From Hyphomicrobiales bacterium (GTDB taxonomy: Bacteria > Pseudomonadota > Alphaproteobacteria > Rhizobiales > JAJFHR01), in NCBI GenBank assembly GCA_021775475.1, contig JAJFHS010000071.1, positions 1 to 64,000 on the forward strand: a stretch of 64,000 bases of DNA, given 5' to 3'. Positions 59,262-64,000 of this stretch are shown here, one piece after another. Each line of letters opens with the position of its first letter. Position 1 is the stretch's first letter. The notes under the pieces were generated by a model that was not told the origin of the DNA, made no database searches, and saw only the letters and a list, made by a program, of their open reading frames with translations. Both the position numbers and the translations under genes were made by a program.

Positions 59262-59873
59262 TTAATGAGCAAAAATATCGGTATCCGACCAGCCGGCAAG
59301 ATCAAGGTTGGCGCGGGTGGGTAAAAACTCAAAACAGCGGGCGGCCAGATCACTGCGGCCTTCGCGCGCCAACATTGTATCCAGCCGGTCTTTAAGCTGG
59401 TGCAGGTAAAGTACGTCTGATGCGGCATAGGTCTGTTGCGCCTCGCTCAAGGTGTCGGCACCCCAGTCGGAACTTTGCTGTTGTTTGGACATATCCAGTC
59501 CGAGCAATTCGCGACAGAGGTCTTTCAGGCCGTGTCTATCGGTGTAGGTGCGCACCAGTTTGGAGGCAATTTTGGTGCAATAAACAGGTGTGCAGGTGAC
59601 GCCGAGATAATGGGACAGCACGGCGACATCAAATCTGGCAAAATGAAAAAGTTTGATGATATCTGGATCACTCAACATGGCCTTCAGATTTGGTGCATCA
59701 TACGTATTGCGATCAAATTGAACCAGATGGGCATTACCGTTGCCCGAAGAAAGCTGTATCAGGCATAAATTATCGCGGTGGGGATCAAGTCCCATAGTTT
59801 CAGAATCAACCGCGATGATATTGCCGAGGTCAAGTCCATCAGGCAAATCGCCTTTGTGAAGTGTTATTGTCAT
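59262..59873 (-). CDS. rnd: Ribonuclease D-like 3'-5' exonuclease
   Basis: A 203-residue DEDD exonuclease: motif I has D and E in AVDSETMGLDP, motif II the D in FHFARFDVAVL, motif III Y and D in YAASDVLYL. It lacks the C-terminal HRDC domain of Escherichia coli RNase D, like most short alphaproteobacterial forms. It processes tRNA 3' ends and other small RNAs. The ATG at 59873 starts at the conserved region; the longer frame from 59918 is unlikely. Confidence 0.9.
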   Translation of the reverse strand: MTITLHKGDLPDGLDLGNIIAVDSETMGLDPHRDNLCLIQLSSGNGNAHLVQFDRNTYDAPNLKAMLSDPDIIKLFHFARFDVAVLSHYLGVTCTPVYCTKIASKLVRTYTDRHGLKDLCRELLGLDMSKQQQSSDWGADTLSEAQQTYAASDVLYLHQLKDRLDTMLAREGRSDLAARCFEFLPTRANLDLAGWSDTDIFAH

Positions 59874-60085
59874 GATTTTAGTCAGGTACCATTGCCGGGT
59901 TAAAATTTCTGCTGCCAACCTACAGTAGATGGATACAATTTACAAAGGTGGCGAGCCAAATGTATGCAATCCGGTTTTTGGTCTGATGAATCCAGTGATG
60001 TTTCTGGTTATACACACCTGATTTGGGCTGGCATACAGGTTGTGCCGTTGTCTTATCACCTGTACATTTTCAATTCATATTAGGT

Positions 60086-61888
60086 ATGGATAAAATGCGC
60101 CAGGATACTGCAACAGATCGAAAAAAAATTAATGTGCTGGCTGACAGGGGTGAATTGTTTGCAGCAGTAGATGCAGCAGTTACCGCTTTGAAGCAGTTTG
60201 ACGAGCCTTCTGTTGAATTACGCCATCTAACTGTTTTGCTGATGGCGCGGGCGGGAAGTCTGAATGAAGCGGACAAGCATTATTCCAATCTGGGATTAAA
60301 TAAAGATGCCGGTGTGGAAGCAAGAACTCTGGGTGCAAGATTGCTCAAAGACAAAGCGTTTTCCTCTCAGCCGGCAAAACAGCACGAGGCGCTTAAAACA
60401 GCCGGTGCCACTTATTTGCGAATTTATCAGGATACCAAAGACACTTATCCTGGCATAAATGCCGCTACCCTGGCAGCGCTGGCCGGGGATTTTCTCACGG
60501 CAAAATCACTTGCCGCAAAGGTTTTGAAAACTCTGGCACTGAGCCCGGATCAGCACAGCTATTGGCATTTTGCTACTGTGGCTGAAGCGCACATTTTGAA
60601 CGGTGATGATGACGCTGCAATCATGGCCATCACCTCGGCGGCTGACAGTGAAGCAACTAAACTGGCAGACCGGGCATCGACACTGGCACAATTGCGCAGG
60701 TTATTAACTGCTCAGAATAAACCACACGACATTCTAAAGCCGCTCACCCCAAAAATCACACTGCATTATTCCGGCCACATGATTGCAGCGAAACACGAAA
60801 GCGGCCGCATTCTGGCTGAAAACGAAAAAGAGGTGAGCTCAAGAATAAGCAGCGCCATCGATGTCCTTGATCCCGGTGCAGCCTTTGGTGCGCTAGCCAG
60901 TGGGTCAGACATCCTGATTGCGGAACATCTGTTAAAACGCAAGATTGATCTGCATGTTATCCTGCCGTTTGCTATCGATGAGTTTATCGATGTTTCCGTG
61001 CGACCTGCCGGTGCACAGTGGGTGAAGCGATTTCATGCCTGTATCGCTCAAGCCAAAACTCTGGGATTTTTGACCGAGCAGCCTTACCTCAACGATGACC
61101 TGTTGTTTGGGATTGCGGCAAAACTTGCTATGGGCCGAGCGGTTTTGCATGCCGGTCACATTTCCGGTGAAGCGCGGCAACTGGCGATCTGGGATAAGCG
61201 CAAAACCGACATACCGGCGGGAACATCGGCAGATGTGGCCAATTGGGAAAGGCTGGGAAACGACACTCATATTGTTGATGTGGCGGATATGGGAAACCTG
61301 CCGAAAAAATCACCCGGTGTCACTTTTGCCTCGATTCCAAAGGGTACGCGGGTGGAGGCCGCGATGCTGTTTGGTGACGTCAAGGGGTTTTCAAAATTGA
61401 ACGACGCCGAATTGCCGCTTTTTGTCGAGCATATTCTGGGGACGATCAATCGTCATCTGGGGGAGAATAAAAACCGCCCTAACTTTGCCAACACCTGGGG
61501 TGACGGTTTGTTTGCGGTCTGGGGCTCACCGGTAAAAGCGGCCATACAGGCTTTGTTGATACAGGATGCTATTGCTGAATTTTCGAGCGGGAAAACAAAA
61601 CTGCCGATGGAGTTTTCCATGCGCATAAGTCTGCACTATGGTGTTGCGCACCGGTTGGTGGATCCGATCCTCGGCCAGAAAAACTATTTCGGTGAGGCCG
61701 TGGCCAGAGCCGCCAGAATTGAACCGATCACCCCGCCCGGCGGCATCTACACCACAGAGCAGTTCGCCGCCATGCTAATGCTGGAACTCGACAGCCCGGT
61801 TGTGGCCGAATATGTCGGCAATATCGCCGCGGCCAAAGACTTTGGCAGTTTTCCGCTGTATCGATTGCGCTGGAAGTTAGCGCCTTAA
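60086..61888 (+). CDS. TPR / SLOG-like / class III cyclase-domain protein
   Basis: A 600-residue soluble protein. The N-terminal half (to about 210) is alpha-helical and TPR-like. A middle alpha/beta region (about 225-320: LHYSGHMIAAKH, FGALASGSDILIAEHLL, DLHVILPFAIDEF) resembles a nucleotide-binding SLOG-type Rossmann fold, which is inference from the pattern. The C-terminal part (about 422-590) is a class III cyclase-homology domain with metal aspartates in MLFGDVKGFSKL and TWGDGLFAVW. The usual catalytic Asn is replaced (GEAVARAARIEP), though the Arg remains, so activity is uncertain. It is convergent with a TIR-TPR gene, 42 bp apart; a signalling pair is possible. Confidence 0.7.
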   Translation: MDKMRQDTATDRKKINVLADRGELFAAVDAAVTALKQFDEPSVELRHLTVLLMARAGSLNEADKHYSNLGLNKDAGVEARTLGARLLKDKAFSSQPAKQHEALKTAGATYLRIYQDTKDTYPGINAATLAALAGDFLTAKSLAAKVLKTLALSPDQHSYWHFATVAEAHILNGDDDAAIMAITSAADSEATKLADRASTLAQLRRLLTAQNKPHDILKPLTPKITLHYSGHMIAAKHESGRILAENEKEVSSRISSAIDVLDPGAAFGALASGSDILIAEHLLKRKIDLHVILPFAIDEFIDVSVRPAGAQWVKRFHACIAQAKTLGFLTEQPYLNDDLLFGIAAKLAMGRAVLHAGHISGEARQLAIWDKRKTDIPAGTSADVANWERLGNDTHIVDVADMGNLPKKSPGVTFASIPKGTRVEAAMLFGDVKGFSKLNDAELPLFVEHILGTINRHLGENKNRPNFANTWGDGLFAVWGSPVKAAIQALLIQDAIAEFSSGKTKLPMEFSMRISLHYGVAHRLVDPILGQKNYFGEAVARAARIEPITPPGGIYTTEQFAAMLMLELDSPVVAEYVGNIAAAKDFGSFPLYRLRWKLAP

Positions 61889-61929
61889 AGATTGAATTTT
61901 TCTTCGGCTACAAAATGATATCCTGACGA

Positions 61930-64000
61930 TTATTTCTCATCCAGCAAACGCTGAAATAATGTCGGCCAAATTTTCTGGCTGGGGGATAATTTTCCTGCTG
62001 CTTCCAGTTTTAGAGCAATCTCCTGTCCTTTTTTCAAAGAGGCTTTTCGCGCCAGACCTTTTTGCACCGTAGACAGTTTGTATAGACTAATCACCAAATA
62101 TGTCTGAAATACTGTGTTTTCGGGTTGAGATGCGGCAAGCCTGTTTCGTATTGTGAAGACTTCTTCAAACAAACCAAGTGCTTCAGCCGGGAATTTAGGC
62201 GCTTTGATTTCACCAATCCTGTTCATGGCTGTGGCCAGGATGCGTTGAAGCTGGATGTTTTCAGGTTGGGATGCGGAAAGTTTACGTTGTATCACCAAAC
62301 TTTCTTCAAACATCGCAAGGGCGCTTGCGGGTGTGTTGCGCTGCTTAATTTCACCAATTCGAGTAAGGCTGGCAGATAGATCGCGTTGAAATTTGATGTT
62401 CTCGGGTTCCAGCGCAACCAGTCGGCGGGATATTTTGCGGGCTTCCAAAAACAATCGGAGTGCAGCTGAAGGGTTGTCACGCTGGTTGAGTTCGCCGATT
62501 TTCGTCAGGCTGAAAAGTAAATCGCGTTGAAATACGGTGTTTGCGGGCTCGGATGCCGTAAGTTTTCGCGATATTGCAAGGCTTTCCTCGTACAACCGGA
62601 GTGCAGATGAAAGGTCATCGCGTTGTTTAACATCCGCGATCTTGTTCAGGTTCAAAGCAATTCCTCGCTGAAACAAAGTATTGTCAGGCTCAGAAGCTGC
62701 AAGCCTGCGCCGTAATGTCAGGCTTTCTTCAAACAGGGCGAGTGCAGCTGTGGGGTCATTGCGCCTTTTGAGGTCACCGATATTATTGAGACTGACAGAC
62801 ATATCGCGTTGAAACAGGGTGTTGTCAGGTTCCTGTTTCAGCAGCGCGCGCTGTATCGCCTGACCCTCCTTATACAACAAAAGTGCCGCAGCGGGATCAT
62901 TGCGCTTCTTGATGGTTGCAATTCTATCAAGGCTTACGAACAGACCGCGCAGAATTTTGGTGTTTGCAGGCTTTGATAGGACAAGCCTGCGCATTATCTC
63001 GAGGCTTTCTTCAAATGCAACCAGCGCAGCGGCGGGATCCTTGCGCTTCAAGATGACGCCGATCCTGTCAAGGCTGTCAGAAATATCATGTTTGAATTGG
63101 GTGTCTGTGGGGTCTGAGGCTGCAAGTTTGCGTCGTATCTCAAGACTTTCCTTAAACAAAACCAAAGCGGCGGCGGGGTCCTGACGTGACCTGATCCGCC
63201 CGATTTTGTTTAAACTGACAGATACATCGCGCTTGAAATCGGTGTCTTCGGGCTCGGATGCTGCAAGTTTGCGTGCAATCACCAGGCTCTCAGACGCCGC
63301 AACCAGTGCGCCCGCCGGGTCACCAAAATTGGCCAGTGAATTTGAGCGCTCACTGAGCGTTGCCGCCCGGCTGCGCAGCAGGTCGTTGGTTTCTTCGCCA
63401 CCTTGCGCGAGATTGTCCTGCAACTTTTGTGCTTCGCCCAATATGCGTAAGATAGTTGCGTTGGGCAGGCCTGAGTTGCGGAACTCCTGGGCCAGTCGAA
63501 AAACCAGCCCGTTGGCGGTTTCGGTGGCGGCGGCGAGGGCCTTGTTGGCGCGTTCGGCATTGAGGATGGCCGCTTGTCGCTGTGCAAATGCATAGAGAGA
63601 TAAAGCAGATGTGAATACCACAGCTGTCAGTGATGCGGCCACGAAAGCCTGCATTCTGCGTTTGGACCGGGCTTCTTCGCGGCGTTTGAGATCATCGAAC
63701 TTAACGCCCAGAATAGATGCCGCAACCCGCAACAGGGCTGATTGTTTAAGCTCCTTATGGCGGGTGTCATCGCGAGGCCTGACGTCGGCGGCGATAGGTT
63801 CGCGCACCTCATCGGACCAGGTTATCTCTCCACCATCAGAAATACTTTTCGGCAGTTTCAATAATAATTCGGGGAAAGCATCACCGGGCTCACCGTCAAT
63901 CAACAAAGCGATGATGTGATCACTGCGGCCAAGCGCATGGAAAGTTCTGATTTCTTCCGATACCCACATGGACGCAGATGTATTTTTTGAACAAATCACC
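61930..64000 (-). CDS. TIR-domain membrane protein with ten 47-residue TPR-like repeats (partial)
   Basis: The 3' 689 codons are in the window; the gene continues past its right end. The first visible 45 residues (VICSKNTSASMWVSEEIRTF and HIIALLIDGEP) are the C-terminal half of a TIR fold. A linker, a single membrane helix (about 118-140) and a coiled-coil-like segment follow. From about residue 208 to 675 ten units of 47 residues repeat, with the consensus (P-A-A-L-x-L-F-E-E-S-L-x-I-x-R-x-L-A) of TPR-like helices. TIR domains act in NAD cleavage or in protein-protein signalling; catalytic Glu and partners lie partly off the window. The gene is convergent with the cyclase-domain protein gene. 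Confidence 0.8.
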   Translation of the reverse strand, partial: VICSKNTSASMWVSEEIRTFHALGRSDHIIALLIDGEPGDAFPELLLKLPKSISDGGEITWSDEVREPIAADVRPRDDTRHKELKQSALLRVAASILGVKFDDLKRREEARSKRRMQAFVAASLTAVVFTSALSLYAFAQRQAAILNAERANKALAAATETANGLVFRLAQEFRNSGLPNATILRILGEAQKLQDNLAQGGEETNDLLRSRAATLSERSNSLANFGDPAGALVAASESLVIARKLAASEPEDTDFKRDVSVSLNKIGRIRSRQDPAAALVLFKESLEIRRKLAASDPTDTQFKHDISDSLDRIGVILKRKDPAAALVAFEESLEIMRRLVLSKPANTKILRGLFVSLDRIATIKKRNDPAAALLLYKEGQAIQRALLKQEPDNTLFQRDMSVSLNNIGDLKRRNDPTAALALFEESLTLRRRLAASEPDNTLFQRGIALNLNKIADVKQRDDLSSALRLYEESLAISRKLTASEPANTVFQRDLLFSLTKIGELNQRDNPSAALRLFLEARKISRRLVALEPENIKFQRDLSASLTRIGEIKQRNTPASALAMFEESLVIQRKLSASQPENIQLQRILATAMNRIGEIKAPKFPAEALGLFEEVFTIRNRLAASQPENTVFQTYLVISLYKLSTVQKGLARKASLKKGQEIALKLEAAGKLSPSQKIWPTLFQRLLDEK

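What the first reader, a model, noticed from the sequence alone, without database searches (positions are those of the whole stretch)
60086..64000. Convergent TPR-SLOG-like-cyclase and TIR-TM-TPR proteins may form an undescribed signalling or defence pair
One protein combines TPR-like helices, a region like the nucleotide-sensing SLOG fold and a cyclase domain with an altered catalytic Asn. Its neighbour has a TIR domain tethered to the membrane and ten long repeats. TIR, SLOG and cyclase domains recur in nucleotide-signal immune systems, but I know of no described system with this pair. They are 42 bp apart and convergent, so they are not one transcript, and the link is by position only.
Basis: inference. 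Interest (0 to 1): 0.65.

Follow-up and report, generated by a model that had tools for sequence, protein, structure and literature searches.

The report
Membrane TIR paired with SLOG cyclase
Two neighbouring bacterial genes, one for a membrane-bound TIR enzyme and one for a sensor-plus-cyclase protein, recur side by side in many unrelated bacteria and probably form a relay in which one small-molecule signal switches on the making of a second.

Summary
P0001 (60086-61888, +) is TPR-S (Pfam PF20308), a SLOG domain and a class III cyclase. Its convergent neighbour, 41 bp away, is a TIR, one transmembrane helix and nine full 47-aa TPR-type repeats plus a degenerate tenth; it runs 242 bp past the window. 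The link is not positional chance. In 100 core-family loci, 43 have a TIR gene within 600 bp (0.85 expected from the flanks), and 47 of the 87 readable loci have one within 1.5 kb. All four orientations occur, in Pseudomonadota, Actinomycetota and Acidobacteriota. The TIR, usually with a membrane helix, is constant; its C-terminal module changes (TPR, WD40, CHASE2, sulfatase-like, nSTAND1-WD40). The catalytic TIR Glu is kept in 48/48 partners; the cyclase metal Asps and Arg in 84/84 family members, with a non-canonical base pocket. Cyclic-nucleotide-binding proteins adjoin the cyclase in 9 of 120 loci. Best reading: membrane TIR makes an NAD-derived signal, SLOG/TPR-S senses it, the cyclase makes a cyclic nucleotide. 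Direction, chemistry and any defence role are inferred. It works like Thoeris/Pycsar but is a member of neither. The likeliest prior description (Burroughs & Aravind 2020) could not be read, so novelty is provisional.

The parts
60086..61888 (+). P0001: TPR-S / SLOG / class III nucleotide cyclase protein, 600 aa (ATG 60086; an upstream in-frame TTG at 60023 is possible)
   Evidence: translation; Pfam; structure; 83 full-length homologues
60107..60745 (+). TPR-S helical module, residues 8-220
   Evidence: PF20308 E 3.5e-9; 12 helices in the model
60755..61279 (+). SLOG domain, residues 224-398, conserved GSLAxGADIxxAE...LHVVLPF motif (G268, G273, D275, E280, P294, W312, R315 and G350 invariant in 84)
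   Evidence: model; Foldseek DprA/ShosA/LOG/TRPM; conservation
61349..61873 (+). class III cyclase domain, residues 422-596: metal Asps D431 (61376-61378) and D473 (61502-61504), Arg R544 (61715-61717); Lys position is N469 (61490-61492), transition-state Asn position is A540 (61703-61705)
   Evidence: Pfam; Foldseek CyaC, Rv1900c, Ma1120; residue counts
61930..64000 (-). P0002: TIR-TM-TPR protein, 770 aa, start codon at contig position 64242, beyond the window
63889..64000 (-). part of the TIR domain inside the window (residues 11-118 are 63889-64212 on the contig); catalytic Glu E97 at 63952-63954
   Evidence: TIR_2 E 3e-12; Glu conserved in 48/48 partners
63586..63642 (-). single transmembrane segment, residues 201-219
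   Evidence: hydropathy; 7 K/R before, 3 after
61966..63372 (-). nine full 47-aa TPR-type repeats and a degenerate tenth (residues 291-759)
   Evidence: DNA repeats of 141-nt spacing; repeat register; Pfam TPR_10/TPR_12
61889..61929 (.). 41-bp convergent gap between the two stop codons
   Evidence: sequence
59262..59918 (-). rnd-like 3'-5' exonuclease, the conserved core-genome edge of the insertion site
   Evidence: Pfam; synteny with three relatives

Best explanation
The two genes are a functional pair: a two-messenger signalling relay. The TIR protein sits in the inner membrane with its TIR domain in the cytoplasm and its repeat module on the far side or at the membrane surface. When the repeat module meets its trigger, the TIR domains cluster and cleave NAD+ to ADP-ribose or a cyclic or conjugated ADP-ribose. 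The SLOG domain (and/or TPR-S) of the cyclase protein binds that molecule, the cyclase domains pair up and make a 3',5'-cyclic nucleotide whose base is not known. That messenger acts through cyclic-nucleotide-binding proteins, encoded next door in some genomes and elsewhere in this one. SHOWN: domain make-up, recurrent adjacency, conservation of both active sites, adjacency of cNMP-binding proteins. INFERRED: membrane topology, direction of signalling, identity of both messengers, trigger, biological purpose.
For: Adjacency: 43 core loci of 100 with a TIR gene within 600 bp, 0.85 expected from the flanking density; 47 of 87 readable loci have one within 1.5 kb; orientations TIR>CYC 20, convergent 13, divergent 9, CYC>TIR 5; Pseudomonadota, Actinomycetota, Acidobacteriota. 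Tandem genes abut or overlap (L076, L060). The partner state changes at least 21 times on the cyclase tree, and the window's cyclase and its sister L063 (52% identical) have different TIR partners, convergent TIR-TM-TPR against divergent TIR-TM-FGE-sulfatase. The TIR is the constant part while the rest is swapped: TPR, WD40, nSTAND1-WD40, CHASE2, FGE-sulfatase, LprI, short forms. 42 of 48 partners have a membrane segment; K/R bias puts the TIR side inside in 30 and reverses in 7. TIR Glu 48/48; cyclase D431, D473, R544 84/84. Receiver: SLOG fold by structure; SLOG of ThsA is a known 3'cADPR sensor (PMC11204291, PMC10022894). Output: cNMP-binding proteins within 600 bp in 9 of 120 loci, 6.5 against about 0.6 per 100 kb further out: CRP regulators, cNMP-patatin, P450-cNMP, ABC-cNMP. 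Three loci carry TIR, cyclase and CRP together (L212, L213, L214). Genomes with the cyclase carry TIR_2 in 25 of 30 against 16 of 85 class genomes without it.
Against: 32 of 87 readable core loci have no TIR or ISSPSDV-nSTAND neighbour; four of the 30 genomes tested that carry the cyclase (G421, G488, G708, G1067) have no TIR_2 match, though two of these carry an nSTAND partner instead. In this window the genes are convergent, so they are not co-transcribed. A close relative (G001) has a cyclase orthologue beside recA without a TIR neighbour. No cNMP-binding gene lies on this contig; the genome has about seven elsewhere. The TS-Asn is Ala here and the Lys is Asn, so activity is not assured. 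The adjacency test treats loci as independent and they are related. No experiment.
Confidence: 0.52

Rival explanations
1. Reverse direction, as in Pycsar: the cyclase senses the trigger through TPR-S/SLOG and makes a cyclic nucleotide that switches on the TIR NADase.
For: Pycsar pairs a pyrimidine cyclase with a TIR effector (PMC11224242). The cyclase base pocket here is non-canonical (N469 in place of Lys, 80/84), which is also where PycC enzymes differ (PMC11224242).
Against: No cNMP-binding domain among the listed Pfam matches of 16 partner TIR proteins or of P0002 (for long WD40 proteins only the best 25 families are listed); partner C-termini are receptor-like modules; cNMP-binding domains sit instead in separate neighbours such as CRP, patatin and ABC proteins; the cyclase protein carries the receiver domains.
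Confidence: 0.15
2. Protein-protein scaffold: TPR-S and the partner's TPR or propeller form a complex, and the TIR acts on the cyclase by contact, with SLOG reading general NAD or ADP-ribose status.
For: TPR is an interaction scaffold; in ASK1 the related TPR region takes part in dimerisation and docking (PMC10972558); MAP3K_TRAF_bd matches P0001.
Against: Partner C-termini are unrelated to each other (TPR, WD40, CHASE2, FGE-sulfatase) and mostly beyond a membrane helix; only the enzymatic TIR is shared.
Confidence: 0.15
3. In this genome the neighbourship is hitch-hiking: two unrelated cargo genes next to a tRNA-Leu integration site, even if the pair is real elsewhere.
For: The pair lies between rnd and a tRNA-Leu attachment-site remnant, next to an integrated element; convergent genes; the TIR family is common (29 TIR_2 matches in G038).
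Against: This is the only TIR_2 gene found in the genome and it is 41 bp from the only TPR-S/SLOG/cyclase gene; the same convergent layout with gaps of -3 to 104 bp recurs in ten Phenylobacterium-type loci with TIR-TM-TPR type partners.
Confidence: 0.1
4. The cyclase is a non-catalytic receptor and the real output is something else.
For: Transition-state Asn is Ala in P0001 and Ser/Thr in most; Lys and Asp base-selecting residues replaced; CRP-HTH/TPR-S/SLOG fusions without a detected cyclase exist.
Against: Both metal Asps and the catalytic Arg are invariant in 84/84; cNMP-binding proteins adjoin it in 9 loci.
Confidence: 0.08

Closest known systems
Thoeris (ThsB TIR + ThsA SIR2-SLOG)
   Same: Separate TIR gene next to a gene whose protein has a SLOG domain; a TIR-made ADP-ribose derivative sensed by SLOG is the shared logic (PMC11204291, PMC10022894).
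   Different: No SIR2 or TM-macro effector; the SLOG protein carries TPR-S and a nucleotide cyclase; the TIR is tethered to the membrane with a large repeat module; PADLOC ThsB profiles match P0002 only weakly (E 3e-4).
Pycsar (PycC cyclase + PycTIR or PycTM)
   Same: A class III-type cyclase with altered base-selecting residues beside a TIR gene (PMC11224242).
   Different: The TIR has no detected cyclic-nucleotide-binding domain; the cyclase has TPR-S and SLOG in front; no PADLOC profile matches P0001 or three relatives.
TPR-S systems and the ASK signalosome (Burroughs & Aravind 2020, J. Bacteriol., from memory; PF20308)
   Same: P0001 has the named TPR-S domain, which that work predicted to sense NAD+-derived signals (recalled from the abstract).
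   Different: Whether that paper shows the TPR-S/SLOG/cyclase architecture with a membrane TIR partner could not be checked.
Toll-like and IL-1 receptors
   Same: Single-pass protein with a recognition module and a cytoplasmic TIR (PMC7075850).
   Different: Opposite order (TIR at the N-terminus), bacterial, TIR active-site Glu kept; analogy only.
CRP-type cAMP signalling
   Same: Class III cyclase with neighbouring CRP-family regulators in six loci.
   Different: Base pocket not that of an adenylyl cyclase; input through SLOG/TPR-S and TIR.

Membership tests
TPR-S (PF20308) | profile match above the curated score | tested here: met
   37.6 bits against 27.6
Class III nucleotide cyclase | fold and profile match | tested here: met
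   Guanylate_cyc 29.7 against 21.9 bits; Foldseek CyaC, Rv1900c, Ma1120 E 5e-9 to 6e-8
Class III nucleotide cyclase | two metal-binding Asp | tested here: met
   D431 and D473, 84/84
Class III nucleotide cyclase | transition-state Asn and Arg | tested here: inconclusive
   Arg 84/84; Asn in 5 of 84, Ser/Thr in 76, Ala in 2 including P0001
Adenylyl cyclase specificity | base-selecting Lys (with Asp/Thr) | tested here: not met
   Lys position is Asn in 80/84 and Asn in P0001
SLOG superfamily | SLOG Rossmann fold | tested here: met
   best structural hits are DprA, ShosA, LOG, TRPM N-termini, at modest TM-scores; no sequence profile match
Enzymatic TIR domain | TIR profile and catalytic Glu | tested here: met
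   TIR_2 47.4 against 28 bits; E97 aligned in 48/48 partners
Thoeris | ThsA effector with SIR2-SLOG or TM-macro | tested here: not met
   no SIR2 or macro domain in P0001
Thoeris | SLOG activated by a TIR-made cADPR | not testable with these tools
   needs biochemistry
Pycsar | PycC profile match | tested here: not met
   no PADLOC match for P0001 or three relatives
Pycsar | effector with a cyclic-nucleotide-binding domain | tested here: not met
   no PF00027 listed for P0002 or for 16 partner TIR proteins
Pycsar | cyclase makes cCMP or cUMP | not testable with these tools
   needs biochemistry
Anti-phage defence system | protects against phage | not testable with these tools
   no experiment; not found in phages or viral contigs, three partial plasmid matches

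The most novel reading that the evidence does not exclude
A bacterial receptor pathway with two messengers in series: an exchangeable sensor on a membrane-tethered TIR makes an NAD-derived signal, a SLOG/TPR-S cyclase converts it into a cyclic nucleotide with a non-canonical base, and cyclic-nucleotide-binding regulators or effectors (CRP, patatin, ABC, P450) carry it out. It would join Thoeris-type and Pycsar/CRP-type signalling in one chain.
Probability: 0.35. Interest if true: 0.85.

Novelty: new variant of a known kind. Interest (0 to 1): 0.7.

Why it matters
TIR-made nucleotide signals and cyclic mononucleotides are known as separate signalling chemistries in bacteria. If the relay is right, one converts into the other, giving amplification and a transcriptional or effector output downstream of a TIR. 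The exchangeable C-terminal modules would be a natural collection of unknown bacterial receptors. It also gives TPR-S, the domain shared with the animal ASK stress kinases, a concrete and testable context.

Tried and rejected
Close-relative scan of genome contigs with P0001 alone found nothing; the alignment version found 335 relatives, of which the best 80 were kept. Chance adjacency by dense TIR content was rejected by the distance profile within the same loci. A general defence-island explanation was rejected for the same reason: the peak is at the immediate neighbour, not across 10 kb. The idea that the partner must be TIR-TM-TPR was rejected: many TIR architectures occur. That ISSPSDV-nSTAND1 neighbours (8 loci) are TIR-like was not shown: hhalign probability 8%, no Pfam N-terminal match; I recalled DUF4062 for them but Pfam did not support it. 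Phage and viral-contig searches gave nothing. The promoter and terminator scan was no better than shuffled sequence. I first read the pair as cargo of the integrated element, but the attachment-site remnant places it just outside. Literature searches found no paper on this pair; the two most relevant surveys are not held.
Full report
WHAT IS THERE. The window is G000:C69:1-64000, and the contig goes on to 77,405. P0001 (60086-61888, +, 600 aa) matches TPR-S (29-130), MAP3K_TRAF_bd (82-182) and Guanylate_cyc (424-565), all above the curated cut-offs. P0002 is C69:61930-64242 (-, 770 aa); 242 bp and the start of its TIR domain lie outside the window. It matches TIR_2 (11-118) and TPR_10/TPR_12, has one membrane segment at 201-219, and nine 47-aa repeats plus a degenerate tenth. 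The stop codons are 41 bp apart.

STRUCTURE. With an 84-sequence alignment (A2) the AlphaFold2 model of P0001 has pLDDT 93.4 and pTM 0.92: helices 8-220, a Rossmann-type domain 224-398 and a cyclase 422-596. The whole model finds class III cyclases (CyaC, Rv1900c, Ma1120). The middle domain modelled alone (pLDDT 96.9) finds DprA, ShosA, LOG and TRPM N-terminal domains, all SLOG-type as far as I know these families, at modest TM-scores of 0.3-0.5.

ACTIVE SITES. In 84 family members the metal Asps D431 and D473 and the Arg R544 are invariant; the base-selecting Lys position is Asn in 80; the base-selecting Asp position is Asn, Thr or Ser in nearly all; the transition-state Asn position is Ser or Thr in 76, Asn in 5 and Ala in 2, P0001 among them. 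This is one consistent non-canonical pocket, not random decay. In PycC enzymes the same neighbourhood sets pyrimidine choice (PMC11224242), but the base used here cannot be predicted. In 48 adjacent TIR proteins the catalytic Glu (E97 in P0002) is invariant.

ADJACENCY. Homologues were collected in two ways: 80 named GTDB loci with flanks, and whole-genome searches of 397 order, 385 class and 398 phylum genomes, with 16, 21 and 14 positive at the thresholds used, plus their neighbourhoods. After removing near-identical copies, 120 loci remained, 100 of them core family (score at least 500). In the core set 43 loci have a TIR gene within 600 bp: 37 per 100 kb against 1.6, 0.8 and 0.3 per 100 kb in successive outer bins; 0.85 expected, nominal Poisson p about 1e-56, which overstates the case because the loci are related. 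Of 87 readable core loci, 47 have TIR within 1.5 kb, 8 an ISSPSDV-nSTAND1 protein instead, and 32 neither. Orientation varies: TIR>CYC 20, convergent 13, divergent 9, CYC>TIR 5. Phyla with TIR pairs: Pseudomonadota, Actinomycetota, Acidobacteriota. On a FastTree tree of 98 family members the partner state changes at least 21 times. The window's protein and its sister L063 (52% identical) have different TIR partners in different orientation. Tandem pairs abut or overlap (for example L076, L060). Ten Phenylobacterium-type loci repeat the window's convergent layout with gaps of -3 to 104 bp; the one scanned, L111, is TIR-TM-TPR.

THE PARTNER. The constant part is the TIR, usually with one membrane helix near residue 200 (42 of 48; K/R bias consistent with a cytoplasmic TIR in 30, reversed in 7, all short two-helix forms from Sphingomonadaceae and relatives). 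The C-terminal module is exchangeable: TPR, WD40, nSTAND1-WD40, CHASE2, FGE-sulfatase, LprI or short forms. At genome level 25 of 30 tested genomes carry TIR_2, nearly all of them cyclase carriers, against 22 of 96 class genomes, or 16 of 85 when family carriers are removed; genome size is not corrected for.

THE OUTPUT. Cyclic-nucleotide-binding proteins occur within 600 bp of the cyclase in 9 loci: 6.5 per 100 kb against about 0.6 further out, nominal p 3e-7. They are CRP-family regulators (L196, L198, L199, L214), a cNMP-patatin/NTE protein (L223), a P450-cNMP protein (L208), an ABC transporter-cNMP protein (L215) and stand-alone domains (L034, L135). In L212, L213 and L214 TIR, a small gene, the cyclase and a CRP gene lie together. 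L044 encodes a Crp-HTH/TPR-S protein whose further part matches the SLOG region. In the window genome about seven cNMP-binding genes exist, none on this contig.

MECHANISM. The receiver domains sit on the cyclase protein, no partner TIR shows a cNMP-binding domain, and cNMP-binding proteins sit beside the cyclase. The simplest order is therefore TIR, NAD-derived signal, SLOG/TPR-S, cyclase, cyclic nucleotide, cNMP-binding output. SLOG as sensor of TIR products is established for ThsA (PMC11204291, PMC10022894). The order is an inference; the reverse (Pycsar-like) and a contact mechanism remain possible.

GENOMIC CONTEXT. In three relatives the order is rnd, tRNA-Leu(CAG), epimerase-like gene. 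In this genome the tRNA-Leu and epimerase lie on another contig (C10), with a gene that looks by sequence like a P4-type integrase (my reading, not profiled) beside the tRNA. A 15-bp exact tRNA-Leu 3' remnant followed by CACCA lies at C69:64325, about 82 bp upstream of the TIR start. The pair therefore sits between rnd and an attachment-site remnant, just outside the integrated element that holds T4SS coupling-like, Replic_Relax and primase genes.

DEFENCE OR NOT. For: mobile-element hotspot, TIR plus nucleotide signalling, occasional nSTAND and patatin neighbours. Against: not found in phages or viral contigs, three partial plasmid matches, conserved layout within Phenylobacterium and Sphingomonadaceae, CRP regulators. 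I put defence at roughly 40% and other signalling at 60% (judgement).

NOVELTY. No held paper describes the pair. TPR-S was named, as I recall, in Burroughs & Aravind 2020, which predicts sensing of NAD+-derived signals; it is not held, so parts of the architecture may already be predicted there. Hence 'new variant of a known kind'.

Noticed in passing
L066, L081, L096, L099, L100, L102, L125, L191, next to the cyclase: In 8 loci the TIR partner is replaced by a protein with an ISSPSDV-type N-terminal domain; the two scanned in full carry nSTAND1 with TPR or WD40. The N-terminal domain has no Pfam match and only weak TIR similarity.
   Followed up: partly
L044:8142-10685, L228:1218-3764: Crp-HTH fused to TPR-S and a SLOG-matching region without a detected cyclase: the same sensor module apparently wired directly to a DNA-binding output.
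   Followed up: partly
L212, L213, L214, between TIR and cyclase: A small gene (145-196 aa as called) lies between TIR and cyclase in three loci that also hold a CRP gene; it may be a third component.
   Followed up: no
contig C69:64325-64341 (L002:4326-4342) and C10:1959-3402 (L243): tRNA-Leu(CAG) integration hotspot: integrase-like gene beside the tRNA on one contig, 3' tRNA remnant on the other.
   Followed up: yes
L002:6184-13284: Integrated element with two T4SS coupling-protein/HerA-like ATPases, a Replic_Relax protein, a primase-like protein and a transposase-like ORF.
   Followed up: partly
G038 (L037, L038 and others): One 6.6-Mb genome with 29 TIR_2 matches, including a TIR-nSTAND1-WD40 gene as third member of the L037 locus.
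   Followed up: no
L058, L084, L089 (Arenicella): Upstream neighbour with long Pro-Glu repeats next to a cyclase without TIR.
   Followed up: no
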